Source: Periconia sp. R9002
Taxonomy: Eukaryota > Ascomycota > Dothideomycetes > Pleosporales > Periconiaceae
Length of the DNA stretch: 64,000 nt
Assembly (NCBI GenBank): GCA_023627715.1
Contig: JAMAHW010000021.1
Span: forward strand, 310,001 to 374,000
Direction: 5' to 3'
Below are positions 32,405-57,525 of the stretch, one piece after another. Positions within the stretch are counted from its first letter, which is position 1; each line of letters starts with the position of its first letter. The notes below the pieces were generated by a model. That model was not told where the DNA came from and did no database searches. It saw nothing but the letters and a program-made list of their open reading frames with translations. A program made the translations under genes and the position numbers.

Positions 32405-33419
32405 CACTAAAGATTGCAGTTGAAAGCCGTTATGGCGCCGGATTGCTCCACAAATGGCATGTGCTAGCTCGTAGTGTGCACTAGAGATTGCAGTGAAGAT
32501 GAGCCTTGTTGGGCGTTCTGCTGACCAGCCTCAGCCACAGAATTACCAAGAAACCATAAGGAAACGGGCGAACCATCGCCTCGCTCATAATCAATGGACG
32601 ACACGTATTTGAAATTCACAGGAGGCGTCTGTTTAGCCTGCATGACGTGATCTACAAATATTTCTAACTTATCTAAGGTTGCCTAGATGTGTGTACTACC
32701 CCACTCCTGCGTTAAAGATTGCAGTAAATTAGGCAGCGAGGCAATACCACGTACGTAGCATTATATATGTTAGCGGATTTAATAAACTAGGACGTGCTCA
32801 CCTTTACTGTAATTTTTACCCTAGCCTAGAAGATGTTCTAAATTCCTACTAACTGCTACCTGCAAAAGGCTATAGTATTATGCTAACGACTCCTCTCTAG
32901 GGTTAAACATTGCAGTGAAATCTAACGGACTAACTGACTCAAAAGATTTCTGTAACTCCAATCTAAGACACTTAATTTATGTTTGTAAAGGAAGCCGATA
33001 TTAGCCAACTTCTGGTCTACTAAATAATTCCTAAAATAATAGTAGTGGAATTCCACCTCATCCTTAGACCCGCGAAATTATGTCCTTTCTTTTAGACTGT
33101 CGCTCTTATATCTTTTGTCGCGCTCTATTAAGTTATTGTTCGCTTACTATTAATTTCGATATTTAGCGCATCCAACGAATGATGTTAAATCTTTCTTGAA
33201 ATTGAAGATTGTAGAGAAAGGTTGCCTAGATTTATTACATATGACTTTCCTAAAAATTACTTGATTAGATATATTTAAGCGGGCTTTATAAACCTTATAG
33301 TAAGCCTTAGCCGAGCCGATAAGGTCTTCGCATACTTATATGTAAATAAGCTCTTACGGGGGCTAAAGATTGTAGTAAAAACTGCCAAGCCATGCGAAAT
33401 ACGGTTTAAATAGGTGCTT

Positions 33420-33722
33420 CTACACACTGCTGTCAAGATATACAGCGGACGTTAAGAATGTTAGGTTAGTAGGTGAGTCTAAACTAATAATAGGAAAGGC
33501 GAATGTAGCGAGTGCGGTAAGTAAGGATAACCGCCACTTAGCGTTTTTTACTGCAATGTTTAGCCCCTGTGAGGAGTCGTAGGCTTCTAGGTATAGTACT
33601 AAGTTGCAAAGTGGTCCTGTAAAGTGTAGTAGTAGGTAGGGAAGGGAACGCTCAGCCAACACCACTGTAAGGATTTCTTCCCTACTGAGAACTATTCGCG
33701 GGGGCTAAACATTGCAGTAAAG
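33420..33722 (+). repeat. Compound repeat, copy 1
   Basis: Contains TAAACTAATAATAGGAAAGG (33482), an inverted core at 33546, GAGGAGTCGTAGGCTTCTAG, a GTAGGGAAG/CTTCCCTAC inverted pair (33636-33644 and 33677-33685), and a + core at 33703. It shares this order with the copy at 36.9-37.2 kb. Confidence 0.75.
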
Positions 33723-33944
33723 AATACTAGGATATTAGGATTTAGATACTTGCATACACGGCGACAACTCTTCCCTAGGGCTAAAGGTTGCAGTGAAAGT
33801 AAATAAAAGCCTATACATCAACCGCCTTACTTTCTATTATATCTACCCTAGTTCTTGTAGTAACAGGACGTTGGAACGCAGGTAATGAAAGTGAATAAGA
33901 ACCTATGCATCACCCGCCTTATATCTACCGCCTTACCTTGGGTC

Positions 33945-34126
33945 GTTCACTATAATGTTTAGCCTCCGCGAGAAGTTGTAGGCTTCTAGGTATAGTTGTA
34001 AAGTAGTTAGGCTTATAGAGTGTGGTGGTTGTAGGGAAGGGGACGCTTAGCCAATACTACCACTACTACTATAAGGCTTTCTTTCCTATAAATAACTGTT
34101 CGCGGAGGCTAAGAATTGTAGTGAAA
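33945..34126 (+). repeat. Compound repeat, copy 2 (shorter)
   Basis: Bounded by an inverted core at 33945 and a + core at 34107. The inside keeps GGCTTCTAGGTATAG, the GGGAAGGGGACGCTTAGCCA segment and a CTTTCTTTCC segment, with further C-to-T type changes. Confidence 0.7.
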
Positions 34127-34655
34127 GTTGCCTAACGTATTCTAATGCTTCGGGCAGCAATACTCTATAACGATCAATTTGCATTTTATGCTGATGCCTC
34201 GCTAGGGCTAAAGATTGCAGTAAAAGACGCTAACCGTTATCCGCAACTTGTAAAGTCCCACCTTGCTTCTGGAATAGGCGATGTGGCGCGAGTAGCTTTC
34301 TCTGTATACACCTCACACTCCTCCCCCAAGCTAACAGTTGTAGTGAAGAACGCTAAGAACCATTTTTACTATTTATTATTCTATACTAATACAAACTAGT
34401 TGCTCCGTATCTACACTAGTCCATCGTTTAAGCTACACGATCGACTTAATGCTGTATTTTACTGTAGTTATTATCGAGATCTTTCCTATACGTCTAGCTC
34501 TACTCGAGCTGACGAATTTTTTGAGATCTTTGTATAAATTCTTATTACAAATTGTAGGAGCTTGAGATTTCCAACTAGGCCAATTTCTGCCATCTATAAC
34601 GTGTAAATCAACTAGGATAGAAAGCATCTCCCCTGCAAAGGCTTGAAGGGAGACT

Positions 34656-36398
34656 CTAGTAGTAAGGGGAAGTGAGCTCTTGAAGCTCATCAAGCGTGAT
34701 ACTAAGACGTGTTGAATTGCTTCCGTCATGATACCTCAACATAGACTGTTCTTCCATATCCTGAGCAAAGACCGACACATCTTGATCTGTACCAAGTATC
34801 ATTGCTCTTCCAACTAGGACGTATCCATCATCCTCCATCTTCATAACTGCCGCGACAGCGGAGTCGGTGAATCGACATATAACATTCCCCGCTGTAGTAT
34901 TTGACGGAGCGTAGCAAAATTTGTCTCCGAACCCGCCCCCTACTAAGAATTTCCGGATGGGGGAAGTCTCCGGTTCTGACGAACGAACACGAAACCAGCT
35001 TCTGATATACGCCTTTAAGTAATTTCTTTCACCTGAGCTAGTACAGTCGGACAGAATCGGCTTGACGAAACCTGGATGTGCCCACCACATGTCGCCAGGT
35101 TCTGGCTCAACAGGACCAATAACAGTACCATATGTTGAACCCATAATTTCCAGCTTTGTTCTCTTAAGCAATTCTTTACATTCCACGTCTTGAAAGAGTC
35201 TCGTTTGCTCGGATACGCTCGTCGACAATCCAAATAAGGCTCGTTGTATTAACTCGCTATCATGTACGTTTGACCACGTTTGACCTCCGCCCGGTAAGTC
35301 TGAGCATGAATGACTTAAGGCATGCAAAGCAACATCACAATACACTTCTGCCAGGCTCTTAGTATAGTCGGGCACGATCCGGCCGTTCTTGCAGTCAGAG
35401 GCAAGTCCAATCATGCCATACACCTTATCTCTAGGATCGGAACATGAGGAGAGTTCACTAAACTTCATCAGTTTCATCAGTGTTAAATCATGAGTCTGAG
35501 AGATCCAACTTCTTCGTAGGTGAAGGATTCGAAATCCGGGAATCATAAGCAGACTTTCCATGGTAAAGCCTTGGCGGAGGATGTGCCCACAGAGAGTGTA
35601 GAATTTGGCGCCATCAACCGAGATGTTCCCGAGACGTATTGATATATTTTCCCCAAGGACAACCTCTTGGATAATCCAGGTTCGGTGCCAATAACCGAGA
35701 GAACACAGGGCTTCGACATCTGTGTACGAGATACAGATCTCTGAATTCTTCGGTTGATGAGCCCATGTTGAGAAAGCTGCAATGGAGGTTTTGCCGGCCT
35801 TTGGGAAAGATATATCTCCACTGAGCAAGTGAGAATCATCGTGATTCAGTTCCAAGGCGTTTATCTCGTTCCAGTCGCCCGTTAAATCTTGACCAGACAG
35901 AGCAGCTAGCCCGGAGGTATTCGACATGATCTTGAGTTGTGTCATAATTCGCCCAAAATTCGTACTTCCATCTTCTTTCCCAAGCCAGCAAATCACGTCG
36001 GCATTGCGGTAGATCGAGCCCATCATCGAAACTTGATTTCCAAGCTCAATCTTATCGTCTTGGTTGATACAAAGAGCATCAATCCATAACCTCTCACGGC
36101 CAGCACCTTTCTGAGGATCCCATGCGCAACGATCGCCCAGATCTTGTCTGAGGTGCCACAGCGCGGACCAGAGATTCTGCCGTACAGAAACCTCCCCCCC
36201 ATTTATTGTAATGAGCTTTTGATCATCCGCAGGCCCCCATTCATACGATAATGCTTTGTACTCGGGCTCGTCGTTAAGATTTGTATGGATCAAGCGGCAA
36301 CAGATTTGGGAGTCGTTTGAACCAGGCTCCAGGATCAGAATCCGTATTCCACCACCAGGATGCAGTGGCTGGTAGATTGGACCGCCATTCTTCGGCAT
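34656..36398 (-). CDS. HET-domain (heterokaryon incompatibility) protein
   Basis: The first ATG (36398) gives 580 aa with no intron. The HET domain spans about residues 40-255, with its three hallmark blocks: YKALSYEWGPADD, ERLWIDALCINQDDKIE and RNADVICWLGKED. The C-terminal half holds SSCSDPRDKVYGMIGLASD, which is common in HET proteins, and a final part with GYVLVGRAMILGTD. HET domains trigger death or growth arrest on recognition of nonself in fusions between strains. The gene is embedded in repeat DNA: core copies end at 34348 and resume at 36824, with compound repeats on both sides. A 23-bp A run (36431-36453) lies just upstream. Its composition is far less AT-rich than the flanking DNA. 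Confidence 0.88.
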   Translation of the reverse strand: MPKNGGPIYQPLHPGGGIRILILEPGSNDSQICCRLIHTNLNDEPEYKALSYEWGPADDQKLITINGGEVSVRQNLWSALWHLRQDLGDRCAWDPQKGAGRERLWIDALCINQDDKIELGNQVSMMGSIYRNADVICWLGKEDGSTNFGRIMTQLKIMSNTSGLAALSGQDLTGDWNEINALELNHDDSHLLSGDISFPKAGKTSIAAFSTWAHQPKNSEICISYTDVEALCSLGYWHRTWIIQEVVLGENISIRLGNISVDGAKFYTLCGHILRQGFTMESLLMIPGFRILHLRRSWISQTHDLTLMKLMKFSELSSCSDPRDKVYGMIGLASDCKNGRIVPDYTKSLAEVYCDVALHALSHSCSDLPGGGQTWSNVHDSELIQRALFGLSTSVSEQTRLFQDVECKELLKRTKLEIMGSTYGTVIGPVEPEPGDMWWAHPGFVKPILSDCTSSGERNYLKAYIRSWFRVRSSEPETSPIRKFLVGGGFGDKFCYAPSNTTAGNVICRFTDSAVAAVMKMEDDGYVLVGRAMILGTDQDVSVFAQDMEEQSMLRYHDGSNSTRLSITLDELQELTSPYY

Positions 36399-36430
36399 GG
36401 TCAGAATAAGATTTAGCAATAGTGATTTTC

Positions 36431-36453
36431 AAAAAAAAAAAAAAAAAAAAAAA
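36431..36453. repeat. Homopolymer A tract (23 bp) upstream of the HET gene
   Basis: Starts 33 bp before the HET start codon when read on the gene strand, where it is a T tract. Poly(dA:dT) tracts exclude nucleosomes; a copied poly(A) tail was considered but there is no supporting structure. Confidence 0.8.
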
Positions 36454-36689
36454 TTAGAGGTAAGAAGGTTGAGGGAAAAGGCAAGCACACAAAAGCCAAC
36501 TAGCCATAGTTAGGTTTGAAGGCAGAAGTGTCTTGGCGTTGTGGCTCAGCATGAAATCTTGCTGTGTTCTGGCCGGAAGCCGATTTTGCAATCGACCGTA
36601 GTAATCTACAGGAGCTATGCAGGGTTTGAAAAGCATGTCTTAAGGATAATAACAAACACTATTCAAATGGGGCGGTACTTAATGTCACA

Positions 36690-36843
36690 ATTGCTAGCAG
36701 GGAGGGCGGCCGACCCTTGCACGGAAGGCGATAATATGGTGGTCGTGGGGAGGAGGACGCTCAGCCAACACCGCCACCACCACCACCGGAAGGCTTTCTT
36801 CCCTGCTGGCAACTGTTCGCGGGGGCTAAAGATTGCAGTGAAA
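36690..36843 (+). repeat. Compound repeat, copy 3 (3' part only)
   Basis: Keeps the GGACGCTCAGCCAACACC and AAGGCTTTCTTCCCTGCT segments and ends in an intact + core. It lacks the inverted core at its left. GC content is higher than in copies 1 and 2. Confidence 0.7.
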
Positions 36844-37453
36844 ATTGCCAAGCCGGCGAAACAGGGGTAAAATGCCCTTCTGCGCCTTCTGCCGAGATAG
36901 GGGTAAAATGCGCTTTTGCGCCTGCTGTCGAGATATGCAGTGGGCGGTGAGAAGGTTAGATTGGTAGGTGAATCTAAACTAATAATAGGAAAGGCAAATC
37001 TAGTAAGTCTAATGAGTAAGGAAAGCGAGAGATTTAGCGTTCTTCACTGTAATATTTAGCCCCCGCGAGGAGTCGTCGGCTTCTATACCTATTTCTAAAC
37101 TAGTAAGGCTTGTAGAGTGTAGTGGTAGCTGGGGAGGGGCATACTCAGCTAACACTGCTACTACCACCACCACTACCGTCGCAAGGCTTTCTTCCCTGCT
37201 AGCAACTATTCGCGGGGGCTAAAGATTGCAATAAAAAAATACTAAGCAAGGGCAAAAGACTAGTGGATTGGCCTACTCTAATTATCCTGCGAGCGTGTTC
37301 AAACACCGTACGTACGTCAACAGGTCCTCGCGGGAACTAACTATTGCAGTGAAATAACCTTAAACTCTCCTCACCGGATCACCTACTTACCCCTGCTCTC
37401 ACCCCACTACCACTATCAACAACTCCTCCCCCGGGCTAAAGATTGCAGTGAAA
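36824..37453. repeat. Left repeat cluster, part B (five core copies)
   Basis: + strand cores start at 36824, 37217, 37335 and 37434; a - strand core starts at 37042. Those at 36824 and 37434 match the 20-bp consensus exactly. A GGGTAAAATGC-based unit is duplicated at about 36866-36934. Confidence 0.9.
36910..37236 (+). repeat. Compound repeat, copy 4 (full length)
   Basis: Repeats the order of copy 1: TCTAAACTAATAATAGGAAA, inverted core at 37042, CCCGCGAGGAGTCGTCGGCT, CTCAGCTAACACTGCTACTA, GGCTTTCTTCCCTGCTAGCA and a + core at 37217. It is less AT-shifted than copy 1. Confidence 0.75.
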
Positions 37454-37762
37454 TTGATATGCTGCGAGAAGAGTCACACTTCACTTCCTGTATGTATACC
37501 TATTCACATCCTACTCACTGTGGTTTCCCAGCGTATATTCTGTCAACCCCCAGGCGTGGCACAGGTAAAAGAAAAAGGTCTATACTGGCGCCAGCACTTC
37601 TAAAGATTCGTCAACGACAAGTATTGTCCTTTTTTTCAATCTATGCTAAGTCTGAGGGTTTGACAAAATACAGGTAGAAAACTGTAGGAGGTAGTAGGTA
37701 CTAACCCCCTGCTCCTCCTCACCAACCCCCAACCCTTACGCACATCGACGACTCCTCGCGGG

Positions 37763-38373
37763 CGCCAAAGATTGCAGTGAAATTGTGATATCCCCCAGGA
37801 CTTACTGTATAAACAACCCCCCTTAACCTATCACCACCACCCCCCCCCCCCCCCCCATCAGTCCATCTTCACCTACTCACCCCTGCTCTATCTCACCCCC
37901 TCCCTCCCGGACACATCTTGACAACCCCTCGCGGGGGCTAAACATTGCAGTGAAATTGCCTTTTGCTTATATGTACCTATATATATAACCACCTCAGACT
38001 ACCTATCACACCCCCCGTCCCTCCTGCTCACCCCCACCACTATGGACGACTCCTCGCGGGCGCTAAAGATTGCAGTGAAAAAAAACCCTGTGAGATGTTT
38101 TTCCCCCTCCTTTACACACCCCTCACACTTCTCGCGGGCGCCAAAGATTGCAGTGAAATATCCCTGTTCAGCCCCTGCCCTTTTACACCTTTAACCCCCT
38201 TCTGTACACACCATCAACAACTCCTCCCCTGGGCTAAAGATTGCAGTGAAAAACCCCGGCTCCCTCTCACCCACCCTCGCACTCGTCCCTTTCTCTCCCT
38301 CTCTCATTCGTTCCTTCCCACACTCCCCTCTAACTCCTCCAACTCCTCGCGGGCGCCAAAGATTGCAGTGAAC
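37763..38373 (+). repeat. Left repeat cluster, part C (six intact + cores)
   Basis: Cores start at 37763, 37936, 38061, 38139, 38232 and 38354, separated by 58-153 bp of C/T-rich DNA. All read on the + strand and nearly all match the core exactly. Each is preceded by the cap ACTCCTCGCGGGCG or a variant. A 17-bp C run lies at 37840-37856. Confidence 0.92.
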
Positions 38374-39038
38374 AATCCCTGTTGTTTTAAGCCTCTTCTG
38401 CTGATGGGTGATGGCTGTGAGTCGCTGCCTACACTCCACTCCTAAACGTAACCCCCGCCCCCCCCCCAAAAAATAATCTGAGCCGCGCGTGTACATACAT
38501 GCACGTATACGTATACGGATACAGAGGTTCGTAGGTATATGATGTATGTGGCGTGTATAAACCAACAGTAACAGAACGTAGAAAGTGCCACTCAGTAGCA
38601 TAAAAGGGTATGTTTATTTATCTGATGGAGAAGAAGAAAAGAAAAATATAAAGGAAAGGTAGGTAAATATAAGTATCCAAGTACATCACTAGAGAGAGAT
38701 GGATGGAGAGAGGAGAAAGGAAGTATTACAAAGAGATGATAAGTTTTTGCGGGAAAGCGAATTTTTGAACAGAAGTACGCTTAATAACAACAACCTGTGT
38801 ACCACGAAATGAAGCGAATAAAAAGAGACAGAAAGAACGGGAAGGTATAAATTCGATGGAAATGCAATGTTTAATGTAAACATAATCGTACAACATCTAA
38901 AAAACCCTTGTATGAATTCCAATTGCGAATGCCCTAAAAACATGCGACCAAACACTCATCACACGATCAGACTTCCCGCCTACCATCCTCCACCTCCACC
39001 TCCTCAAAAGAAACACGAAACCACTCGCACCTCGCCCC
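38374..39038. other. Intergenic region 3' of the YIP5-like gene
   Basis: About 665 bp without a gene or core copy; the TACGTATAC-rich and later purine-rich parts hold nothing recognised. Confidence 0.5.
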
Positions 39039-40098
39039 TTAAAAAAACAACATCCGTATCAAATCCCCCTTCTTCTCCCCCTCTCCACCCTCAGCCCCGG
39101 ACCCAGCGCCAGGCCCATCTTTCGGACCGACGGGACTCGTAGCGGCGAAGAAGAGCACCTTGATAGCGATGGCGAAGCCAGCGTGCAGTGCGAGGACAAC
39201 GACGAGTAAGATTTTCGAGGTTTTTGCCTCGGTAGAGGAGAGCACAGGGTACAGGTTGCGAAGGAGGAAGAAGACGGAGGCGGCGAAGCCTAGGGCGACG
39301 AATATGAAGTTTAGGACTGTGTTTTCGTTAGGTTCGTACTGTTTTAGGGGAGAGGGGAGGGGGAACGTACTGTTAATCGGACTGCAACTAATAAGCGCGA
39401 CGGGTATCCAAATCAAATTCGCATACCCATACAAACACACACACTCCAACAAATTCGCACTCTCACTCCCATACCACTTGAGCACGGCCCACAGCCCCGC
39501 GGGGACCAGCGCGGTATACCCATACACCATGCCGGCACCGCCGCTTAGGAGCTTGAAATCGTACGCGAAGTGGTCTTTGCCCTGGTGCGCAAGGTACTGG
39601 TTGATGGTGCCCGTGAGGAACAGGATGACGACGACGGTGGTGGCGATCCATACGGGGCCGTAGAGATCGGGGTTGCCCTCGAGCACGTCGAGGAAGTTTT
39701 GGCGCGGGTACAGGGTTGCGGTGCAGCGGTGCAGGACGGACGAGGTGTCGACGTCGAAGGCTTGCGCGTAGAAGGAGAGGGTCCAGAGGTAGTGTTTGCG
39801 CGAGGAGGACGAGGAGGCGGGGGCCGGGAGGAAGCCGGTGGTTGCGGTGTCGGGTTGGATTTTGTTACGGGAGGAGGGTGTGTTTTCGAAGTCTGCGGGT
39901 GGGTTAGGGAGCGCTCGCAATGGGTTGTCTTGTCGGCGGGCTTACTGGAGCTGTGGAATTCGAGATCCTCGCGGAGGTCTGTATGGCCTAGGTCGCCCTG
40001 CGAGGATGTTAGTTTTAATGGAGTGAAGCTAGTAGTGATTGGAAGCTTCGCACCTCCTGGTCCACGTCGACAACGACATCGTATCCTCTGTTCGCCAT
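39039..40098 (-). CDS. YIP5: Yip1-domain Golgi membrane protein, YIP5/YIPF1-like
   Basis: Four exons on the - strand: 40098-40054, 39997-39946, 39892-39371 and 39316-39039, giving 298 aa. The introns are 56, 53 and 54 bp. The N-terminus reads MANRGYDVVVDVDQEGDLGHTDLREDLEF. LWTLSFYAQAFDVDTSSVLH and NPDLYGPVWIATTVVVILFL are the YIPF1/2-Yip5 signature before the first span; about five membrane spans follow. The third intron is a multiple of three without a stop; removing it restores SPINILNFIFVALGF, as in relatives. Yip1-family proteins bind Rab GTPases and act in Golgi vesicle transport. One intact core repeat lies about 190 bp upstream of the ATG. Confidence 0.88.
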
Positions 40099-40286
40099 GG
40101 TGGTGGTTTGATGAGCTAGTAAGTAGCTGGAGCTCTGCGGCCAGATTGCGTCGGAGGTCTGGCGTTGGATCGCAGTGATACGGAGCACCGTCAGCCACAG
40201 GATAGGGAGCGTTGCAGGGATGAGCTTAGTCACGCATCTTGAACAGTGTGATTGGCTAGGTACTCTAACCTCAGACTCCTCGCGGG

Positions 40287-40306
40287 GGCTAAAGATTGCA
40301 GTGCAA
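40287..40306 (+). repeat. Isolated core copy upstream of YIP5
   Basis: GGCTAAAGATTGCAGTGCAA, one base off the core near its end, with the cap GACTCCTCGCGGG directly before it. It lies in the promoter region of the - strand YIP5-like gene. Confidence 0.9.
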
Positions 40307-40716
40307 AAACGTCAGCTTTTCGAAATATATAGTGTTGTTGCCTAAGCTTATTCCTCACTTTTATTAAAACACGAGAGGTTAGGTCGTCCCAGCCGTTTTC
40401 AACCATCTAAATTCCATATACCAAACCAAACCAAAACGCACACATAAAAAACCATACTCATCCTCCTCCTCGTACTCATCCATATTGACAATCCCAAAAC
40501 TCTACTAGCCACTCAACTCCCCCGCAGCAGCCGCAAACACATCCCACAAACTACCCATCCCAGCGAAAAAAAAGACAAATACGCTATACCCCATCTCAAA
40601 CGACCGACCAGATACTTAACTGCACAGCCGTTCGTTGCTGGTGGCAGCGGCCCCCCAATCTCCCTGTGGGAAGTCCTCCACGTCCCATCTCACGTCACCT
40701 CACAACGTCTCGCGCG

Positions 40717-40736
40717 GGCTAAAGATTGCAGTGAAA
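40717..40736 (+). repeat. Isolated core copy 3' of glycogen phosphorylase
   Basis: Exact match to the core, with cap CGTCTCGCGCG. About 350 bp beyond the stop codon of the - strand GPH1 gene; the last copy of the left cluster. Confidence 0.9.
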
Positions 40737-41086
40737 AAAGACGCTAAGCCACTCTTCGACTTTTCTCCTATCTCATCCACGTTAAAATTAGAAGGACGCA
40801 GACGAATCAGAGGAGGGGGATGGAGTGGGGGTCAGTGTCAACGTGATTTGATATGAATGTTGGTCAAGTAACGCTTTGATTAAGTCATTATATAATAGGT
40901 AAGAAGAGGAGAATAGAAGCTTGTAGGGGAAAGGGGAGGAGGAGGGGATAGGTAAAGGGGTGTATGAATGGAGAGGTTACAAATTGATGAAGGTATGGAT
41001 AAGTCTCATGCAGGATGAGACAGAGACTGAAGATAAGTCAAGCATCTCCCTTCCACGCGTTCGTGCTATAAACCTCGTCGGAACCC

Positions 41087-46847: not shown

Positions 46848-49800
46848 GGGGAGCGAAGGAGAAGGTTGGGTTGATTTCGAGTGGTCGTGGTGATGGCGAT
46901 GGTCGTGGTGATGGCGATGGTCGTTATGGAGGTAGTGGTTGCTCGGTCATTCCAAACCCCCTCCCCCCTCTCAGCTAGCTGCAGTGCCAAGTGAAAGTGA
47001 TGGTACAAAGGTAGGTAGGTAGGTGGACAGGAAGGTAAGAAGCGGGTTTGTAGGTGGTGGAAGGTGGAAGGGTAGGTACGGGATCGATGCAATGCAGAGC
47101 GGGAGAAGAGCAGAAAGGGAGGTTGATGTAGGAGGGCGACAGGCGTCTATATAGGTTTTGGCCTTGGACGAGGAGAGGCATGCATACCTGGGTAGTAGGT
47201 ACATGTGTACATAACGTCTGTGCAGAGAGGCCTGAACGGGAGATGGCCGCCAAAGGATGGACGGATGGATGGTATTGCAGTAGTGAGTTGACGGTGAAAA
47301 GCGGCTGACGTGGGCCCATTTCCCTCCCTCAGGCCTCAGACAATCCAATGCTTTTCTTCTGCCACGGCCACGGCATGGGGCTGCCACTGGGCCTAGGCCG
47401 CATTGATGCGCTTTTTTGTTGCTGCCAAACGCTCCACAGTGTGCGACAAAAAAAGATACTTCTCCACGACAGAAGCACGCTAGAATCTATCGAAATCGTC
47501 CACCAACTATCGAAAAAAAAATTATTTGGGAAAAGAATCCACCGCCGTGAAACACGTACACCTGTCATGGACCAAGAAGAGCCGTTCTCCCGGGCGTACA
47601 TACATAACAAAACTATGTACACGCACACGCAATATCAAAACCACGCACGCCATCACCCACAACTATAGTCGCATATGCACTCCAATCTACACAAGGACCA
47701 TACACACCTCGTCAGCACTATCCCGTCTCCCTATGCAAATTAACATGCAGTCCCCCCAGACCAGTCTAGTCCCCCAACTCCCCCTCATCCGTTTACCGAA
47801 CCGCAATTCAAATGCTCCCCCCTCTCTGTAGTTCTGGTGTGTAGTTAGACACCACTGTGGATAGAAATGATGATAAAGCCCGACCGAGCGGCACTTGACC
47901 CGCCCCTCCCCATAGTGATAGTCGATGCAGTACATATTGTGGCAGCGAACCAGGCCCCGCCGCCCAAACATTATTGCTCGCACGTAATGTAATGTGTGTA
48001 GCGTCCTGCACTGTGTTCGTCGCTTCACTAACTAGTCGCTTCTTTCCAAACCATCTTTTTCTTTCTCTTTCTCTCTCGCTAGCGGCCGAAACTAATTCGA
48101 GCTATTGGAACTTCTCAAGCCTATTTCACACAAACAGTGCCTATATTGTTCTTGCAATTTCCATGCTGCATCAAGTGCGCATCATGGCTGGCTGAACGTA
48201 CATTACTTCGTCTCGACTTCAAAACGAGTCGTCGGTGATTGAGTGATCAGGATCATATTCTTAGCACCGCCGTGGGTAAGCCATCGCCCGCAAAGTTCAC
48301 ATGTAGGTGAGCACAGGCACATAATCCTCCGCGAACCTGCCCGCACGTACACAATGCCCAAAGACGGGATTCTGCATCAAATATCTACATACGTACCAAC
48401 CGACTGTGATGTCCATTACCTACCTCGCGGCCCCCCGTGCGAGATGAAGGGAGGAGATGGAGCGAGCCTAGAGGATTTTCAGCTCTCGCCCATTCTCCGC
48501 CTCGTCTCCCTCCCAATTCGCCCGTGGCTTGTGTCTTTTAGTGTGTCCATGTACCTACCTCCTGACGCTCCGTGTGCGGATTAAAAGTGTGGCTGCGTCG
48601 TCTCTCCTCCCCACACCGAACCCCGTTCTCCTGGCTACGCCGTAGGCTGCATCACCCACCCACCTCATCTCCTCTCCATCAATCTCACACCACCAGACCC
48701 ATTCGCTGCATGCCGAGAAACATTGCGCACTGCAGCATTTGTTGACCCGTATCCACAAACACACACTCTCTCTTTCTTTTCAATCCACTCTCTGCCCAAA
48801 ATCGTCCGATGCTCGTTCGGTGAGGAAGAGTTCGTGCGAATGGATGAAGTGTAGTGCCCCACTTTGAGCCGGTACACGCCGGGAACGCACAAATCCTACG
48901 CACAGCACATAGACGAAACCAAGGATATTGCACGGAATCAATTCAGTCTCATCATCAATGATTATTATCCATGGATACCTATCCACAATGGCCTACACTG
49001 CAACACTAGCGCTCCCATGTCTGACATGCTGACGCCGCAGCCAGTACCTACAGTACCTAGAACCACACCTATATACATAACAGGAAAACCACCGTGAACA
49101 AACAACTCCATATCCACATCTCCCTACATAAGTACTCTTGCTCCGCACACGCACACATATCCAAAATATGCGCGTTATGTCGGCATCAACACTGACTCCC
49201 CTAACCCCTTAACCAAAACTACCAATCCCGCCGCCCAAGCAAACACTTCCACATCCGGAACTAGTACCTACACCGCCTCCTCTTGAGTCTCTGTGTGCTC
49301 TCAACTACATACCGCTACTGCGGGGCGCTGCCTGTTAGGTGTATGGTTTGCCTGACTCGCTCGCGGGTTTGGCGAGGGAGTGCTACAAAGGGTACTGACA
49401 CCCTCGTTGTCAAGGAGGTTGTCAGGTAGCTTTTTTTGTTTGTTTGTTGGTAAGCAGGGACGGGATAGATGGGCAGGCTTCTCCGAAGGACACGTGTGAC
49501 CGTTATGAATTAATTAATCAAAGTATATTTGTATTCGCAAATGATTGATAGAATTATCCACGGCATCAACACTAGGTATAGGTAAAGTCCTTGGCTGAGA
49601 CGTGCACACCGGTAGATATATGTCACGTGATTGAGGAGCTTGGGATTACATAATGTGTCATCTCCAGAAAATGACTTCTGTTGTCCAACATCCGCCTTCA
49701 TGGTTCAGTCAATATGCAACCAAGGAACAGAAATCACCACAAGTGATCACTCGACTGATTGTTCACAGTAGTGACACAAATATGGTGCCCGGCCTAGGAC

Positions 49801-49889
49801 ACACAATCCAAGAGTTGAGTACGCGGGAGAGACCACACAGCCACGTTCACCTTCTCATCAAGGCAGAATACTGATATCGATACAACAAA
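46848..49889. other. Three-kilobase divergent intergenic region
   Basis: Lies between the cyclin-like gene (-) and the F-box-like gene (+). It has an 18-bp GGTCGTGGTGATGGCGAT direct repeat near 46882-46922, a GGTA microrepeat near 47011 and C/T-rich DNA. Many short ORFs overlap on both strands; none is convincing. No core repeat occurs here. Confidence 0.55.
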
Positions 49890-51602
49890 ATGATTTCTTT
49901 TTCGATGGAACATGACCTCCCAGAAGAGATAGTAGACATCGTCGTCTCGCACTGCACACCCGCGTCTCTAATCGCTCTATGCTGCTGTTCAAAGAAGTTG
50001 AATCGTATCGCCACCCCGCGTCTCTACGCCATAGTCTGTTTCCGATTAAAACCCCCAGAATCAGATTTTCCCCGATCAGTTGTCAACAATGACTCGAGAT
50101 ATGCGGCTGAGGATGAAGACCGCCGTGCGACCCACAGCTCCATGTGGTCGTTCCTCCCTTTTGCACACCTGCTGCTCACCTCGCCAGTCCATGCCGGGTA
50201 CGTGCGGTCTCTGACGATTGGACACTTTGAGCAAGATAAACCGTCGCCGGAATGGGCTGTCCGACAGCTTCACCAGTCGTTGGGACAGATTTGTCAGAGG
50301 TGCACTGCGAACGAAGATGATGCGCATGCCGTTGCTGAATTCGTCAACAGCGGAGTCGACAATGCTGCTCTCTTCGCTTTACTCTTCATGCATCTTGGCA
50401 ATCTCCAAAGACTTTGTTTGCCTCCCAACAATCCCGATCGAACCTTCCGCCACAGTCGTTGGGAGAGTCTCATCCGCGTTCTGCGCCTTGTTGCATATGG
50501 CCAACAAGGCGGGTCGGCAGCAGCGCGGCACTATGCGCCTCTCGACATCATGTTCTTCGGTGGAATACACTGGGGTCACCCATCATCAACTGAAGTGGTC
50601 GCTTTTCTCCTTAGCCGCCCCAATATTCGCTCTCTATATGTTTGGAACCTAGGGATGCTACACCTGTACAAACCTGCTCTACAGCTGTTCCAAAAGGGCA
50701 TGGACCCAACCCCCCTGGATGGAACGGCAATCTCCATCCTCCAGCCTCGTTCGCTGGGGTTGGAGTTTGTAGAACTCAAGGAGACGAATTTTTCCGGCAG
50801 CCAGATTCACCATTTTATGGGGGCCTTAATTCCTGGTGTGCTGAAAACGCTAATCTACAAACTTGATTCGAGCTCCGGATCTGGCCACAACGAAATCCTA
50901 GAGAGTCTGACTGCCCACCACGGGACCCTAGAACGTTTAGAATGGCCGAATATTCGCAGGACCCGACTCAACAGTCGTGCCACCATCCTACCTGTCTCTT
51001 TCCAAGCCTTCACCAACCTCAAAAAACTCAAAGTCGCCCCAATCTCCATCTGGGGACGGAGTAGATTACGGGACCAGGTTGCAGTCCAAGATCCCTCTTC
51101 TATACCGATGCTGCGAGACGCGCTACCGTCTACCCTCGACGAGCTCTGGATCACCAACCTCGACGCCGATAAAAATGGCCAGCCTGGATACATCACCACC
51201 CTTGTCCTCCCCGCCCTCTCCCTAGTCATCTCGCACCGCGATGACTCCTTCCCTCATCTCACGCACGTATATCTCTCCTTCGAAAAGGTAACCGATTACG
51301 GTTACAGACGCGCGGATCTTAAATGGTTGAAAGCGCTTCCCCCTATTGCTTTATCCGCCAGGAAAGCGGGCATAACGCTCGTCGCCAATCCTAGATACGA
51401 GTATGACTCCAACATTCCACGTCCCTGGGGCTGGTACGAAGATGTCAAGTGGAAGCAGTGGGAATGCGAGTATGATGACTTCGAGGCCGTTTCGCGGCGT
51501 ATCGTGGTCGCGGACGTAGGGGATGTGGTGGAGGCCGTGAAGGCCATGCCATTGCCAATTCTAGTTGACGAAGAATCGGAAGAGGATGGATGCTCTTTGT
51601 AA
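49890..51602 (+). CDS. F-box-like/LRR-like protein, unknown target
   Basis: A single 570-codon reading. Residues about 8-50 resemble an F-box: DLPEEIVDIVVSHCTPASLI, then ALCCCSKKLNRIATPRLYAI. Behind it are irregular leucine-spaced segments (LQRLCLPPN, IRSLYVWNLGMLHL, LGLEFVELKETNF, LKTLIYKLD, LDELWITNL), as in fungal F-box proteins with degenerate LRRs. Such proteins recruit substrates to SCF ubiquitin ligases through Skp1. The start could be the ATG at codon 1 or codon 6 (MEHDLPEE). Fungal genomes carry many rapidly evolving F-box genes of this type. Confidence 0.75.
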   Translation: MISFSMEHDLPEEIVDIVVSHCTPASLIALCCCSKKLNRIATPRLYAIVCFRLKPPESDFPRSVVNNDSRYAAEDEDRRATHSSMWSFLPFAHLLLTSPVHAGYVRSLTIGHFEQDKPSPEWAVRQLHQSLGQICQRCTANEDDAHAVAEFVNSGVDNAALFALLFMHLGNLQRLCLPPNNPDRTFRHSRWESLIRVLRLVAYGQQGGSAAARHYAPLDIMFFGGIHWGHPSSTEVVAFLLSRPNIRSLYVWNLGMLHLYKPALQLFQKGMDPTPLDGTAISILQPRSLGLEFVELKETNFSGSQIHHFMGALIPGVLKTLIYKLDSSSGSGHNEILESLTAHHGTLERLEWPNIRRTRLNSRATILPVSFQAFTNLKKLKVAPISIWGRSRLRDQVAVQDPSSIPMLRDALPSTLDELWITNLDADKNGQPGYITTLVLPALSLVISHRDDSFPHLTHVYLSFEKVTDYGYRRADLKWLKALPPIALSARKAGITLVANPRYEYDSNIPRPWGWYEDVKWKQWECEYDDFEAVSRRIVVADVGDVVEAVKAMPLPILVDEESEEDGCSL

Positions 51603-52188
51603 CTTGACTCTTTTTTTTTTTCCTTAAGAGAGAGAGAAAGAGTGATGAAGAGCTGTGGTGATGTTCTCATTCTGCCGATCTGGTATAGGAATAATCTAAG
51701 TGAATCGCTGTCTTAAATCAACACCTTACTATTCTATCTTAACTCGTTCCCTATTGTCCCACTTCTGTCTTTTATATAATCTTTGCTACGCCATTGAACT
51801 TGACTTGATTTACCTCATTTACATACATACCCACACATACCCTTCTTCCTCCCCTATCCCCCTAAACAAAGCGCGCAAACTGAACCATAGATCAAACGTA
51901 TAGATCCCCCTTTCTTCTCCCAACCACCTTCCCCCTCCTCCCCGCCTTTATTTCCCTCCAATCCAATCCAATTCAATCCAATACATTTCACAACCAACCA
52001 ACCAACCAAATAAAAACACACCAACCTGTCCCAAAACCCCCACATTCCAACGCCATAATCAATTGAAGATCACTGCACTTCCCTAGCCCCGCCGTTTATT
52101 AAGAGTAGGGCTAAAGGAAGAAGTGTGTGTTGTGTTAATCCATGTTAAAAGGTCGACTAATCTAGACTAGCCTAGGTACAACTCCTTG
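51603..52188. other. Intergenic region before the right repeat cluster
   Basis: About 590 bp, C/T/A-rich, with CCAAT/CAACCAAC-like words at about 51955-52005. No gene. Confidence 0.5.
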
Positions 52189-52964
52189 CATCACTGCAAT
52201 GCCGGGAGCTTCACTGCAATGTTTGGCGCGCTGGAGGAGTTGGGGGAGTTCGTGAGGAGGGGGCGGCGAGGGGCGAGGACACAGTGTGTATGCCTTATTT
52301 CACTGCAATCTTTAGTCCGGCTGAGGAGTTGGGGAGTTAGTGTGGGGCCAACGTTTGAGCCAACTGGAAGGTAACAGGCTTCACTGCAATCTTTAGCGCC
52401 CCGGAGGAGTTGGTGAGTGAGGGAATGCGGCTGAAGGAAGTGGTGTCTGTTGTGTTGTTTTGTCAAACGAGGTTGATTAAGCAGGCAATTTCAGCCAAAC
52501 ATGTCAAAGCTTCTTTCACTGCAATCTTTGGCGCCCCGGAGGAGTTGGAGAGACCTCATTGCGCGGTGCCTTACATGCATGAAAAAAGTATTATGCACTT
52601 GGAATAGTAATGACTACCTAGGTTGCCTAGGCCTAGTTTGGAAAGGTTGTTGTAAAAGGTGTTTACTGCGACAAAGACCGTATAATCCCGACATGCATAT
52701 TTCACTGCAATCTTTAGCCCCGCTGAGGAGTTGGACAGACCTCATGCACATAAGCCTAGGTACCTATTGCCCAATCACGCAACGGCGTCTTTCACTGCAA
52801 TCTTTGGCGCCTCGGAGGAGTTGGAGACGGCAAGTATTTTTCGAATTACCGTTGTAGTAGTTGTTACTGCAATATCTAGCGCCGCAGAGGAAATATGTGT
52901 ATTTCTGTGTAAGGAAGTTTACGATAGGTCGGTATGGACCCACATTTCACTGCAATCTTTAGCC
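52189..52964 (-). repeat. Right repeat cluster, part A (nine cores)
   Basis: Cores read TTTCACTGCAATCTTTAGCC on the + strand (- orientation), starting at 52189 (truncated), 52209, 52298, 52379, 52514, 52700, 52790, 52862 and 52945. Most are followed by GCGCCCCGGAGGAGTTGG-type caps. Spacing is 20-186 bp. There is no ORF of note. Confidence 0.9.
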
Positions 52965-53405
52965 CCAGGGAGATATTGGCAAACCGGTGAACCCATCAGC
53001 CTCATTTTTTACCTCCTATGAAGGGGTGAGAGGGTGGATAATCAAACAGTTTTGAATTTCTTTTTCCTCTTTCGTGACAGTGATTTTTAGATAGAATTAT
53101 TTTGAAAGAGAGATGACAGGCATGGAGTTTGATATTTGTACTCCAACGTTGGTAGTAGGCAAGTATATAAACATAAATGACGCATAAATCCAAATTCCAT
53201 CTACCGTGACTTCACATCTTCTACATTTACGAGGGAGAAGAGAGTTGAATAGTCAATACCAATTCCCAATGCGAGGAGAGTGTAAGGAGATGCAAAAATT
53301 GACCGACCAATGATTGCACTGGTTTGATTCGTATATAACTCAAACAGAGAGGAGGCTGAAAGGCCGGAAAGGGCAAACTAAGCACAGACGTCAAATTGCG
53401 TGCGA

Positions 53406-54204
53406 TTTTACTGCAATCTTTAGCCCCACTGTGGTGTGTGTGTGTAGCACGTGTAATGCAGGGTGGCTGATTTGGCTTGGCGCACATGTTACATCAAACT
53501 AAAGAGGTGCTACGCGTAATCACCTTCAGTGCAATCTTTGGCGCCCCGGAGGAGTTTGCACTGGTGGCTAGTCAGCTGATGAAAGGGTGAGGCTGTACGT
53601 GGAAACAAACTATCCAGTGTAGAGCTCATACTTCCACACCTTTTCTCGCATACTGTTATTATGTTAACTACAATCTTCTGCATCCCAGGGGAGTTTGCGA
53701 TAATCAGCTATCCAAAGGTCAAAGTTGTATGAATCAGAAAACAGGCAGTAGCAATTTACTACGATCTTTCGTGCTCCTGAGGAGTGTGAAGATTGCGCAT
53801 GGTTAGATTTGTAGGTGTTGATTCATGTTTTCATCTTTCGTTGGAGATATGACGCTGCTTCTTATACGCTCACCGGAAGTGTGGTATGTCTATTTTATCC
53901 TCTCCGTTATTGGTTTCACTGCAATCTTTGGCGCCGCAGAGAAGTGCGATAATCAGCGTATATGTAAGTAAGCAAAGTCATGCACACCCTCAATCTGTTA
54001 GAAACACAGAGATGATTGGTCGGCTAATCTGCTTCTACACACTTCCTATCTTGGAAGAAATACAAACCAATCACTAGACAAAGTTTGATAGGCTTTCCTA
54101 ACCTTGCGCCTTTCACTGCAATGTTTAGCCCCAGCAAGGTGTGTGTTAAAAAACCGGTGACATTACGACCTGAATTGAGCCTTCCTTCACTGCAATCTTT
54201 AGCC
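53406..54204 (-). repeat. Right repeat cluster, part B (seven cores)
   Basis: Starts at 53406, 53524, 53662 (degraded), 53754 (degraded), 53914, 54111 and 54185, all in - orientation. Spacers of 54-178 bp separate them. No gene is present. Confidence 0.85.
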
Positions 54205-54351
54205 CCCGAGAGGAGACGAAAAGCTACCTACCATAATCACACCACGCACGTCCATCAGCACGAACTCTAAGCCAACGATCGCCAATCATGAGCTCCCAAC
54301 AGACATGTGTATATATGGGGATACCGGTGAACTCTCCCACCGGTTGATCCT

Positions 54352-55268
54352 TTTCACTACAATCTTTAGCCCTGGGGAGATGTTGCAAAACCGGTGAACC
54401 AAAGACATTTCCAGCGCCTCGTCAATGGTTGCCTGTTGATTGCCTTCTTCTTCACTGCAATATTTAGCCTCAACGCGATGTTGCAGAACCGGTGAAGTGA
54501 AGAGATTTTCGACCTTGTACAACAGAGCTTACCTTTTTGTTGAATACGAGATATTATTCACTGCAAACTTTGGCGCCACAGAGGAGTCTGGCCTCCTGCT
54601 AGACGATGGGTAGGTATTCAATCAAGTATAGGATCCGCGTGTGATGTCACCTTACTTACACCTTCACTGCAATCTTTAGCCCCAACGCTGTGTTGCAAAA
54701 ACCGGTGAAGGTGATCTTTAGCCCCCCAGAGAAGTTAGAAAGTTACCTGTCATCAGCATGGCCCTCTAGCTAAACACGCTTCGTTGTTAATAGAAGCGGC
54801 CCTCAAAAAAATTCACTGCAATCTTTGGCGCCCGCGAAGAGTTGTAAATCTTGGGACAGTAATTCCCTTCACCCGTGACACGGCGAACACTAATGTCATT
54901 CCCCCTCCACTGCAACCTTTAGCCCCCCAAGGGATTCATATATTTGCTTGAAAAGTCACTATAACACTGAGTTTACTGCAAGCCCTTACCCCCCACACGA
55001 TCTCTCCAAACTAGTCAAAGTGAACGTTTTCTCAAATGTAGGGTTGTGTATGCGTATTCCACAGTCTTTCTTTGCCGCTATGCATATTTATCATGCAAGT
55101 ACGTATTGATTCCATTGCAGGAGGGATGTGCAATTGATATCCACTGCAATCTTTGGCGTCCGCGAGGCGTTGGAAATAGTTCGCATGTGACACACGGCGA
55201 ACGTCCTGGAAGACTCGAGCGTTAACGTCTTGTCTTGACCCGAGCGTTTTCACTGCAATCTTTGGCGC
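54352..55268 (-). repeat. Right repeat cluster, part C (ten cores)
   Basis: Starts at 54352, 54450, 54556, 54662, 54708 (5' truncated), 54811, 54905, 54970 (degraded), 55139 and 55249. Copies at 54352, 54450 and 54662 have the CAACxxxxxGTTG-type or related cap, with ACCGGTGAA 18-20 bp beyond the core. All are in - orientation. Confidence 0.88.
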
Positions 55269-55372
55269 CCGCGAGGAGTTTGTGAACAGTTATGTAGTTA
55301 CCCTAGACATTCACCCCCCCTACTCACCCAACTAAGCCTACATGTGAACCACATACAGGGCCTCCACCTCCC

Positions 55373-56274
55373 TCTTTACTACACTCCCTAGCCCCAACGC
55401 AGTGCCGCAAACAAAGCCCCTCCTCTCTCTGAGCAAACCTTTACTATATCTGACTAACCGTATCCCTGCACTCTACCGCCGCCTTGGAATTTGCACTGCA
55501 ATTATTAGCCCTCCAAAGGAGTCTGAACTACGCGAGTACTGGCTGAATTTGATAATAATGAAGACGCGGAAAATGGTATACTCCGATTAGGAGGTAGAGA
55601 TATAGCTCCTCTCTGCCCCAGAGAGGGAAGTGGAAGAATTAAGGAAGTGTTTCGTTAGTACTAATATTCTGAAGTCGTGGATTCCAGCGAGCGAAGAGTG
55701 ATGACTAGGATTATCTTGTTCTTCCTCAGATTTTGGTGGATGTTAGGCAAGGGTTCACTGCAATTTTTAGTCCCCTCGAGGAGTTTGAGCCGGTGAACGC
55801 GAACCTTTTGCTGTCATGTATGTAAGTATTAATGGATATATATTCCATAATCCCTCGTGATTCATGATTAGATTGCAGATTTTCCCATGGATCTTGGTGG
55901 CCACCGGTTGCACCGGTGAACTCGTCCCTCACCTATTTCACTGCAATCTTCATCCCCCAGAGGATTTGAGACCGGTGAAGGTGAACCATTCGTGTTTATG
56001 CATCCCTGAATTCCGATGAGACGGACCTTTCACTGCAATTCTTCGCGCCCGCGAGGAGTTGAAAATGTTTACCCAAGACATTCAATCCCTCCAACTCACA
56101 CCAATAAGCACAAGACTTCTCCCACCCTCTCCACCCCATGCTTCATGTAAGAGGTAAGAGTAGCCTCTAATCTCTTCACTGCAATCTTTAGCCCCCCAGA
56201 GTCATTTGCACCGGTGAACCTCTCGGGTTTGTGAGATCCTTTCGGCTAAACATTGTTCACTGCAATCTTTCGCG
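55373..56274 (-). repeat. Right repeat cluster, part D (seven cores)
   Basis: Starts at 55373 (degraded), 55491, 55753, 55936, 56028, 56174 and 56255. Those at 55753, 55936 and 56174 have the downstream ACCGGTGAA or GCCGGTGAA. The last is directly preceded by a truncated + strand core. Confidence 0.88.
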
Positions 56275-56364
56275 CCCGCGAAGAGTCGTCTGTAAACAAT
56301 CCAACAACCATCCATCCTACATGTTCACACGTGACATCAACTCACACCCACATACCCTCCATTA

Positions 56365-56496
56365 CGGGGTTTGGCACACCCTGGGAATACTTTCCGACAG
56401 AAATCAAAGTCTAGATTGTACGTTAAGAGGGTGTTAAACAGTATTTTAAAGTAGAAAGTGCGGTTAACACCCTATCCTAAGCCTAGCCAAACCCCG
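56365..56496. mobile_element. 132-bp MITE of Tc1/mariner (Fot1/pogo) type
   Basis: Perfect 11-bp terminal inverted repeats, CGGGGTTTGGC at the left end and its complement at the right, are flanked on both sides by TA (56363-56364 and 56497-56498). A second inverted pair, AGGGTGTTAA and TTAACACCCT, lies inside. TA duplication and these ends fit Tc1/mariner elements such as Fot1. With no coding sequence it must rely on a transposase elsewhere. It sits in a spacer of the right repeat cluster, so it arrived after or independently of that array. Confidence 0.75.
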
Positions 56497-56521
56497 TAAT
56501 GTCTCCGCCCCCACCATACAT

Positions 56522-57525
56522 TTTCACTGCAATCTTTCGCGCCCGCGAGGAGTTTGTAGCGCTGTAAAATGCAAGCGAACACGATTTCACTGCAATCTTT
56601 AGCTTTCTAGAGGTCGTTTGTAGATAGTTACTTGCCCTTGACATATACACCCTTCACCAACTCGCACAACACACTAACCGCTATAATCTCATCCTCCATC
56701 GTATCGAAACATCCCGGAGCGCGGGGTCGATTTCACTGCAATCTCTAGCCTTAACGTAGCGCTGTAGAAAAAACTGGTGGACTAAAATATACTCGACATT
56801 GTAGTATTAATCCCTGTCCCTGATTCGTAACACTAACGTTATGTTTACTTTCACTGCAACCTTTGGCGCCAGGGAGGAGTTGGGACCGGTGTAGATGAAC
56901 CCCTCCCCTTTCCATCATATTCGTGTTCTATAGTACATACATCCTTGTGGGAGGCCGACCATTATTTTCACTGCAATCTTTAGCCCCCCGGAGGAGTTGG
57001 GACATGCAAGGCTCTTCACTGCAATCTTTAGCCCCCCAGAGGAGTCGAAAAACTCGAGGGAAGTGTTCGATTGGTGATGAGTGCTACCGAATACGAGCGG
57101 TTCCGTTGACTTCACTGCAATCTTTGGCGCCAGGGAGGAGTTTGTTACCAGTTGTGTAGTTACCCAAGACATGTAACCCCTCCCCCACCCCCATGCTTAC
57201 ATGTAAAAGACATGGGACCTGGTACTTGCGCTACGATCTCTAGCCCCAACGAATCGTATTACGGAAATAGGCGCGCAGGCACCACCGTTCCAATCGTCCG
57301 GTATTTGCACTGCAATCTTTAGCCCCCCAGAGGAGTCGAAAGACTTCGAGGGAAGTGTCCGATTGGTCACAGGTGCTACCTTATATATGTTGCGGCTCTG
57401 TTGCACTGCAATCTTTGGCGCCCGCGAGGAGTTTGTGAACGGTCACCTTGCTCACCCCCTTCCTCTAGTACCGCGACATATCTTGTCCCTACGTCCGTAC
57501 CTCCGAATTTACTGCAATCTAAAAC
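56522..57525 (-). repeat. Right repeat cluster, part E (eleven cores)
   Basis: Starts at 56522, 56585, 56731, 56849, 56966, 57014, 57110, 57226 (degraded), 57305, 57401 and 57506 (truncated). All are in - orientation. The spacer between 57014 and 57110 is similar to that between 57305 and 57401, so a two-core unit has been duplicated. Confidence 0.9.

What the first reader, a model, noticed from the sequence alone, without database searches (positions are those of the whole stretch)
32405..57525. About 70 copies of an unrecognised 20-bp core in two clusters that face each other
The core GGCTAAAGATTGCAGTGAAA occurs about 26 times at 32.4-40.7 kb (23 on the + strand) and about 44 times at 52.2-57.5 kb (all on the - strand). 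Spacing is irregular (about 20-450 bp) and spacers are mostly unrelated. Such strict orientation within each cluster, with opposite polarity across about 11.5 kb of single-copy genes, is not expected from random transposon insertion. A repeated local duplication mechanism, a directional protein-bound array or a once-joined array split by inversion could explain it.
Basis: seen in the sequence. Interest (0 to 1): 0.88.

Follow-up and report, generated by a model that had tools for sequence, protein, structure and literature searches.

The report
Clustered 34-base motif arrays between genes
In this fungus a 34-base DNA signature is repeated about a hundred times, packed into a handful of mostly one-direction arrays that usually lie where two neighbouring genes run towards each other, which suggests a set of protein landing sites of unknown job rather than scattered junk DNA.

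Summary
A 34-position profile finds 61 copies at E<=0.0013, all in the two stretches: 24 in 32.4-40.7 kb (21 +, 3 -) and 37 in 52.2-57.4 kb (all -). The core belongs to a bipartite unit: AACTCCTC, a degenerate 4-base linker of nearly fixed length, then GGGCTAAAGATTGCAGTGAA. In the 42.9-Mb fungal genome it is not scattered: 72 of 74 places with <=2 mismatches lie in arrays on four contigs. With motifs masked, all 24 spacer matches among nine array stretches are within one locus: arrays grow locally, and the two window clusters are not one array split by inversion. Core letters show no locus structure although the cap does. Seven of eight array intervals lie between convergent genes, against 1 of 21 array-free long intervals in the stretches held. 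No convincing target-site duplication, Rfam match or printed core was found. Best reading: arrays of a constrained, polar protein-recognition site, reshuffled by local duplication and inversion. A fork-barrier or architectural role is possible but unshown; a fossil transposon end is the main rival.

The parts
32398..34347 (+). Cluster 1a: 11 motif copies at E<=0.01 (9 +, 2 -) and a weak one at 34317 (E 0.12); AT-rich, RIP-like; between SLATT-domain ORF (+) and HET ORF (-), convergent
36739..38373 (+). Cluster 1b: 11 motif copies (10 +, 1 -), the first within a half unit at 36739-36843; between HET ORF (-) and Yip1 ORF (-), the one tandem interval
40274..40736 (+). Two isolated + copies between the Yip1 and glycogen phosphorylase ORFs
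33539..33724 (.). Head-to-head (inverted) unit, motif - at 33546 and + at 33703; one of three related units (177, 182, 195 bp) seen only in cluster 1
33940..34127 (.). Second head-to-head unit; its outer flanks differ from those of the other two, no target-site duplication seen by eye
37035..37240 (.). Third head-to-head unit
52210..57433 (-). Cluster 2: 37 motif copies (E<=0.01), all on the - strand, between two convergent F-box ORFs
56966..56999 (-). Example of the full 34-bp unit (best-scoring copy): cap AACTCCTC, linker, core
56357..56502 (.). Spacer stretch matching a dispersed repeat on many contigs (79% to the best-scoring other copy)
53279..53348 (.). Spacer stretch matching a second dispersed repeat (six other places, 89-96%)
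52586..52664 (.). Spacer stretch matching two other places (86%)

Best explanation
These are arrays of a constrained, asymmetric, bipartite DNA-recognition site (8-base cap, degenerate 4-base linker of nearly fixed length, 20-base core), bound by a protein not identified here. Shown: the site, its confinement to a few arrays, its polarity, its uniform core across the array loci, locus-private spacers partly made by local tandem and inverted duplication, and the position mostly between convergent ORFs. Inferred: that a protein reads the site; that sites standing in a row make the region prone to template switching, which duplicates spacer-plus-site blocks and now and then flips one; and that the position at shared gene 3' ends points to a chromosome-level job (polar replication-fork pausing or termination, or an architectural boundary) rather than to promoter control. 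The fork-barrier step is the least certain (about 0.15 on its own).
For: Information falls to background outside a 34-bp unit in 95 copies chosen on the core alone. A cap with <=2 mismatches stands at one offset, alone (60) or tied with a second offset (8), in 68 of 93 copies; 4 are at other offsets and 21 have no such cap. Linker letters depart from consensus in 158 of 372 cells against 170 of 744 in the cap, p=2.6e-11. Core letters are as alike between loci as within (2.64 vs 2.66 mismatches, permutation p=0.49), while caps keep locus structure (6.99 vs 6.49, p=0.002). In the eight compared pairs outside cluster 1, aligned spacers differ at 223 of 775 and cores at 13 of 159 positions (my sums). 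Neighbours share orientation in 86 of 103 cases (p=3e-12). Array intervals are convergent in 7 of 8 cases against 1 of 21 array-free intervals over 1.5 kb, p=3.9e-5; against a flat 25% expectation p=4e-4, against one third p=0.003.
Against: No binding protein, chromatin, replication or RNA data. Many copies are decayed (3-6 mismatches), so constraint is loose, or relaxed in part. Copies were found by core similarity, which inflates core conservation in the pair comparison. An old burst of identical inserts would also leave cores without locus structure. Arrays between convergent genes might only mark the places where extra DNA does least harm, and the comparison intervals come mostly from the same contigs with ORF-based gene marks. 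Orientation is mixed in one array, and the cluster pairs do not keep one polarity rule. No protein with a long row of zinc fingers stood out (150 of 179 candidates scored).
Confidence: 0.45

Rival explanations
1. Fossil terminal repeats of an extinct DNA transposon or MITE. The 34-bp unit was the inverted terminal repeat; local duplication multiplied stray ends.
For: Three related 177-195 bp head-to-head units in cluster 1 end at TTCAC...GTGAA, and one of them has different outer flanks. A bipartite 34-bp end is what a transposase could read. A single copy stands at C44 and a pair at C58.
Against: No convincing target-site duplication around 87 units; the inverted unit has no relative outside cluster 1; no carrier element with such ends turned up in the genome-wide pattern searches; one-way orientation is not expected of insertions; spacers are locus-private.
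Confidence: 0.3
2. A recombination-driven selfish satellite without host function: the core persists because only units with matching cores keep being exchanged and copied.
For: Duplicated spacer-plus-core blocks; inverted duplications such as the palindrome at C57:87137-87202 and C30:271588-271752; strongly RIP-marked stretches, cluster 1a and C59.
Against: Local exchange should make cores more alike within than between loci; they are not. It does not predict a degenerate linker of nearly fixed length.
Confidence: 0.17
3. Rows of tiny transcription units that share a promoter motif, like nematode 21U-RNA genes, each spacer giving its own small RNA.
For: Shared bipartite motif, private flanks, clustering and common strand; nematode piRNA loci carry an upstream motif and sit in clusters (abstract beginnings).
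Against: No 5-mer at a fixed distance in the flanks survives correction for about 20,000 tests a side (best p 4.4e-6 for CACCG, 8.7e-6 for TAATA), and no strand bias of 5' splice-site words (11 vs 10); no Rfam match to E 0.5 in 32-58 kb; one spacer is only 14 bases long (56966/57014).
Confidence: 0.05
4. One array split by an inversion into two facing clusters.
For: Opposite polarity in the window.
Against: No spacer match between clusters 1 and 2; five further arrays on other contigs, with other spacers.
Confidence: 0.03

Closest known systems
RTS1 polar replication fork barrier of Schizosaccharomyces pombe (Rtf1, Myb-domain)
   Same: A row of repeated motifs, four in about 450 bp, giving a barrier that works in one direction; arrested forks restarted by recombination give slippage, ectopic template switches and inversions (passages of PMC10473836 and PMC3475662).
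   Different: Here up to 37 sites per array at several loci; the two motifs were not compared by sequence; no barrier activity tested; one array has mixed polarity.
Satellite DNAs with a conserved CENP-B-box-like motif (Meloidogyne Box 1; human alpha satellite)
   Same: A short conserved box inside otherwise divergent units, with rearrangement junctions at the conserved motifs (abstract and passages of PMC3694981).
   Different: Units there are tandem monomers of about 170 bp; here spacing is irregular, loci are small and lie between ordinary genes, and the unit is 34 bp. Likeness to the CENP-B box was not tested.
Terminal repeats of DNA transposons and MITEs (recalled)
   Same: Bipartite end sequence and inverted pairs in cluster 1.
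   Different: No convincing target-site duplication, no dispersed family, mostly single ends in one orientation.
C. elegans Type-I piRNA (21U-RNA) loci with the Ruby motif (search listing and abstract beginnings only)
   Same: A shared motif beside private sequences in clusters.
   Different: No sign of transcription units, far fewer copies, no corrected positional signal in the flanks.
Jeffreys minisatellite core; E. coli Ter sites; V(D)J recombination signals (all recalled)
   Same: A core shared by different loci; oriented site groups; a fixed-length degenerate spacer inside a bipartite signal.
   Different: No likeness of sequence was tested; settings differ as recalled.

Membership tests
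Polar replication fork barrier (RTS1 kind) | A row of repeated motifs, mostly in one orientation | tested here: met
   (arrangement only; binding not shown)
Polar replication fork barrier (RTS1 kind) | Arrests forks from one direction, needs a Myb-type protein | not testable with these tools
   Needs 2D gels or polymerase-usage sequencing
DNA transposon / MITE | Target-site duplication around copies | tested here: not met
   87 units, 77 boundary pairs, six lengths, 30 shuffles each. Highest z 4.3 is for 2-base words that lie inside the conserved unit (8 full matches vs 6.1 in shuffles); largest excess of full matches 6 vs 1.9 at 2 bases; for 4 to 8 bases no listed excess
DNA transposon / MITE | Dispersed copies with the same interior | tested here: not met
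   the inverted unit has three matches (itself included), all in cluster 1
DNA transposon / MITE | Paired inverted ends | tested here: inconclusive
   seven head-to-head neighbour pairs under 600 bp among 111 copies
Satellite DNA with conserved box | Tandem units of near-constant length | tested here: not met
   One search reports no tandem array spanning the clusters (longest period sought 500); spacing 48-243 bp and more
Satellite DNA with conserved box | Box conserved more than the rest, duplicated blocks ending at the box | tested here: met
   pairs were chosen through their cores
Structured RNA family of Rfam 15 | Covariance-model match | tested here: not met
   Searches (whole window, gathering; 32-58 kb, E<=0.5): 0 matches
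Small-RNA transcription units with shared promoter | Fixed-distance start or stop signals beside the motif | tested here: not met
   nothing survives correction

The most novel reading that the evidence does not exclude
A dedicated chromosome-landmark system of a filamentous fungus: directional arrays of a long bipartite site, placed between convergent genes at a few loci, read by one protein to stop forks or set a boundary at the shared gene ends.
Probability: 0.22. Interest if true: 0.82.

Novelty: new variant of a known kind. Interest (0 to 1): 0.6.

Why it matters
A 34-bp asymmetric site this specific, kept the same at several loci while its surroundings change, is a ready handle for pulling out an unknown DNA-binding protein. 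If the arrays pause forks or bound domains at convergent genes, they would give filamentous fungi a natural counterpart of RTS1 or ribosomal fork barriers at ordinary genes. If instead they are fossil transposon ends, they show how ends can become one-way satellites that partly escape repeat-induced mutation.

Tried and rejected
Scattered repeat: rejected; 72 of 74 places with <=2 mismatches are in arrays on four contigs, and all 63 matches of the cap-plus-core pattern are on those contigs (62) or C44 (1). Captured cassettes: four array sequences were used as genome queries (cluster 2, cluster 1a, C30a, C30b; not 1b, C57a, C57b, C59). Outside their own locus they found dispersed repeats, motif-sized matches and, for cluster 1a, one 90-bp match at C58:250266 that I did not follow; one search scored 40 of 127 first-look candidates. 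Splice signal (branch point plus 3' splice site): set aside because the arrays lie outside the long ORFs and flanks show no strand bias of 5' splice-site words. Coding peptide: not tested; ORFs inside the arrays were listed but not scanned for domains. Helical phasing: none. Published sequence: four spellings of the core gave 0 papers; topic searches on Periconia genomes, fungal arrays, minisatellites and fungal satellites gave listings with nothing on point (listings and abstract beginnings only). Viral contigs: 0 matches of a 19-base core; prokaryote genomes: 0 exact matches of the 32-position pattern. Another array of the same build: no other dispersed 12-mer with five or more copies in 10 kb in 294 kb held.
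Full report
What was checked. The core GGCTAAAGATTGCAGTGAAA occurs 49 times with at most 3 mismatches in the window, against 0.01 expected by shuffling. A sequence-only profile of 34 positions built from these 49 copies finds 61 matches at E<=0.0013, 24 in 32.4-40.7 kb (21 +, 3 -) and 37 in 52.2-57.4 kb (all -); with E up to 0.5 there are 66, still none outside the two stretches.

The genome. The window is part of a 42.9-Mb genome in 267 contigs. A 570-aa F-box protein of the window has two relatives at E<=0.001 among the 8000 candidates scored, in Periconia macrospinosa (53% identity) and P. digitata (33%), so it is probably a pleosporalean fungus (placement of Periconia recalled). HET and SLATT_fungal domains fit a filamentous ascomycete (inference).

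Anatomy of the unit. In 95 copies chosen on the core alone (<=3 mismatches in the stretches then held), information is confined to positions -15 to +19. There are two blocks: AACTCCTC and GGGCTAAAGATTGCAGTGAA, 4 bases apart. Of 93 array copies, 68 have the cap (<=2 mismatches) at offset -13 (60 uniquely, 8 tied with a second offset), 4 at -11, -12 or -14, and 21 have none. The linker is more variable than the cap (158 of 372 vs 170 of 744 non-consensus cells, p=2.6e-11), though less than the outer flanks, and within the core some positions are free and others nearly invariant (chi-square p=8e-12, 85 copies). A site of nearly fixed geometry with a free linker is what a bipartite reader leaves; a plain decaying insert would not be expected to do so.

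Distribution. With <=2 mismatches there are 74 places genome-wide and none for the reversed control; 37 are in the window, 23 on C30, 5 on C57, 7 on C59, 1 each on C44 and C58. With <=3 there are 98 against 2 for the control; of the five places off the arrays that I read (C3, C5, C61, C44, C58), C5 and C61 lack a cap and look like chance. The stricter cap-plus-core pattern has 63 places and no control match. The profile over 244 kb of other fetched stretches, 40 kb of them control sequence from C1, gives 48 matches at E<=0.01 and none in the control stretches. Together 109 copies lie in eight array intervals, one further window interval with two copies, and a few places off the arrays.

Orientation. 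Neighbouring copies within a cluster agree in 86 of 103 cases at <=4 mismatches (p=3e-12). Cluster 2 (35 of 35) and C59 (9 of 9) are one-way; cluster 1 is 21 of 24, C30b 10 of 11, C57 6 of 7; C30a is mixed, 17 and 5. In cluster 1 the three - copies belong to head-to-head units of 177, 182 and 195 bp that share their interior; a fourth - match with 5 mismatches at 32802 does not. At C57:87137-87202 a perfect palindrome with 31-base arms starts inside a core (sequence), and C30:271588-271752 is a 77% inverted repeat around two copies.

Spacers. With motifs masked, a sensitive comparison of nine array stretches gave 24 matches at E<=0.01, all within a locus (1a and 1b counted as one) and none between loci. 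Upstream flank similarity (score >=10) is seen in 28 of 1195 within-locus pairs and 13 of 4890 between-locus pairs; downstream the contrast is weaker, 6 of 1195 and 11 of 4890. Some of the between-locus scores probably come from neighbouring motifs in the flank. Twelve chosen pairs, not all independent, show spacers of 63-87% and cores of 75-100% identity; in the eight outside cluster 1, cores differ at 13 of 159 and spacers at 223 of 775 aligned positions (sums mine). These pairs were picked through their cores, so the contrast is biased upward. Most spacers have no detectable relative. Three spacer stretches in cluster 2 match repeats elsewhere in the genome, at 79%, 89-96% and 86% identity; they show that the array has taken up other sequence but do not date it.

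Why not simply copies of one another. Local tandem growth should make cores resemble their own locus most. They do not: 2.66 mismatches within and 2.64 between loci (p=0.49), whereas caps do (6.49 and 6.99, p=0.002). Leaving out C59 and admitting 4 mismatches, cores are 3.08 within and 3.18 between (p=0.16) and caps again differ (0 of 500 permutations). This favours constraint on the core to one consensus; a single old burst of identical inserts would also give it.

Position. With ORFs of 220 aa or more as gene marks, the eight intervals with three or more copies are 7 convergent, 0 divergent, 1 tandem; 21 array-free intervals over 1.5 kb in the stretches held are 1, 8 and 12 (Fisher p=3.9e-5). 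Other marks: 200 aa, p=9e-6; 250 aa, 6 of 7 against 3 of 25, p=6e-4; 300 aa, 5 of 6 against 3 of 23, p=0.0025. Gene marks are crude, the stretches are mostly the array contigs, and convergent intervals without arrays are usually short (recalled), so the fairer figure is 7 of 8 against a flat quarter, p=4e-4, or a third, p=0.003. The flanking genes show no common theme: Pam17 and pyruvate carboxylase, two kinases, F-box and zinc-cluster proteins, a fungal rhodopsin and an MKT1/XPG-like protein, BBC1. The three F-box proteins are not close paralogues in the two comparisons made. Such a position speaks against promoter elements and is compatible with fork termination, cohesin or boundary roles, or with mere tolerance.

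RIP. Cluster 1a and C59 have TpA/ApT 1.48 and 1.60 and (CpA+TpG)/(ApC+GpT) 0.84 and 0.43, as after repeat-induced point mutation; cluster 1b (1.35 and 1.01) is partly so. Cluster 2 and C30 are slightly raised in the first index only (0.92-1.01; second 1.10-1.14) against 0.73 and 1.14 in a neighbouring genic stretch; C57 shows 0.78-0.94 and 1.32-1.39.

Mechanism. The best reading is a polar protein-recognition array that is locally duplicated and inverted. The closest working model is RTS1 of fission yeast, four repeated motifs read by a Myb-domain protein, whose arrested forks yield slippage and template switches (passages of PMC10473836 and PMC3475662). The closest structural model is satellite DNA whose CENP-B-box-like motif marks the junctions of divergent monomers (PMC3694981, abstract and passages). 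Neither sequence nor function was shown to be shared. The main rival, fossil transposon ends, is weakened by the lack of convincing target-site duplications and of a dispersed family.

Limits. No expression, chromatin or replication data; no related fungal genome could be searched; gene models are ORF-based; genome searches score best candidates only.

Noticed in passing
window 34656-36419 (-) and flanks: A HET-domain ORF sits inside cluster 1; the array on its two sides holds related segments (33.4-33.7 kb and 36.9-37.2 kb, 72%), so gene and array may have been rearranged together. A 23-base poly-A lies just upstream of the ORF.
   Followed up: partly
G000:C57:87137-87202 (in L015): A perfect palindrome with 31-base arms and a 4-base loop that begins inside a motif core, apparently a recent fold-back duplication.
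   Followed up: partly
window 56357-56502, 53279-53348, 52586-52664: Three stretches of cluster 2 spacers match repeats elsewhere: many contigs, six other places and two other places.
   Followed up: no
window 30992-31936 (+): ORF with a SLATT_fungal domain next to the array.
   Followed up: no
window 24285-24628 and 17569-17820: Tandem repeats of 159 bp (inside a 356-aa ORF) and 81 bp.
   Followed up: no
21-30 bases upstream of eight cores, mostly in cluster 2: A second short word, TTCACCGG, precedes a subset of copies, possibly a sub-lineage mark.
   Followed up: partly
G000:C58:162803-162858 (L022): Two tail-to-tail copies 16 bases apart, away from any array.
   Followed up: partly
window 33350-33740 vs G000:C58:250266-250355: Cluster 1a as a query gave one 75% match of 90 bp on C58 (query 599-687, window 32948-33036) that is neither motif nor a known repeat here.
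   Followed up: no
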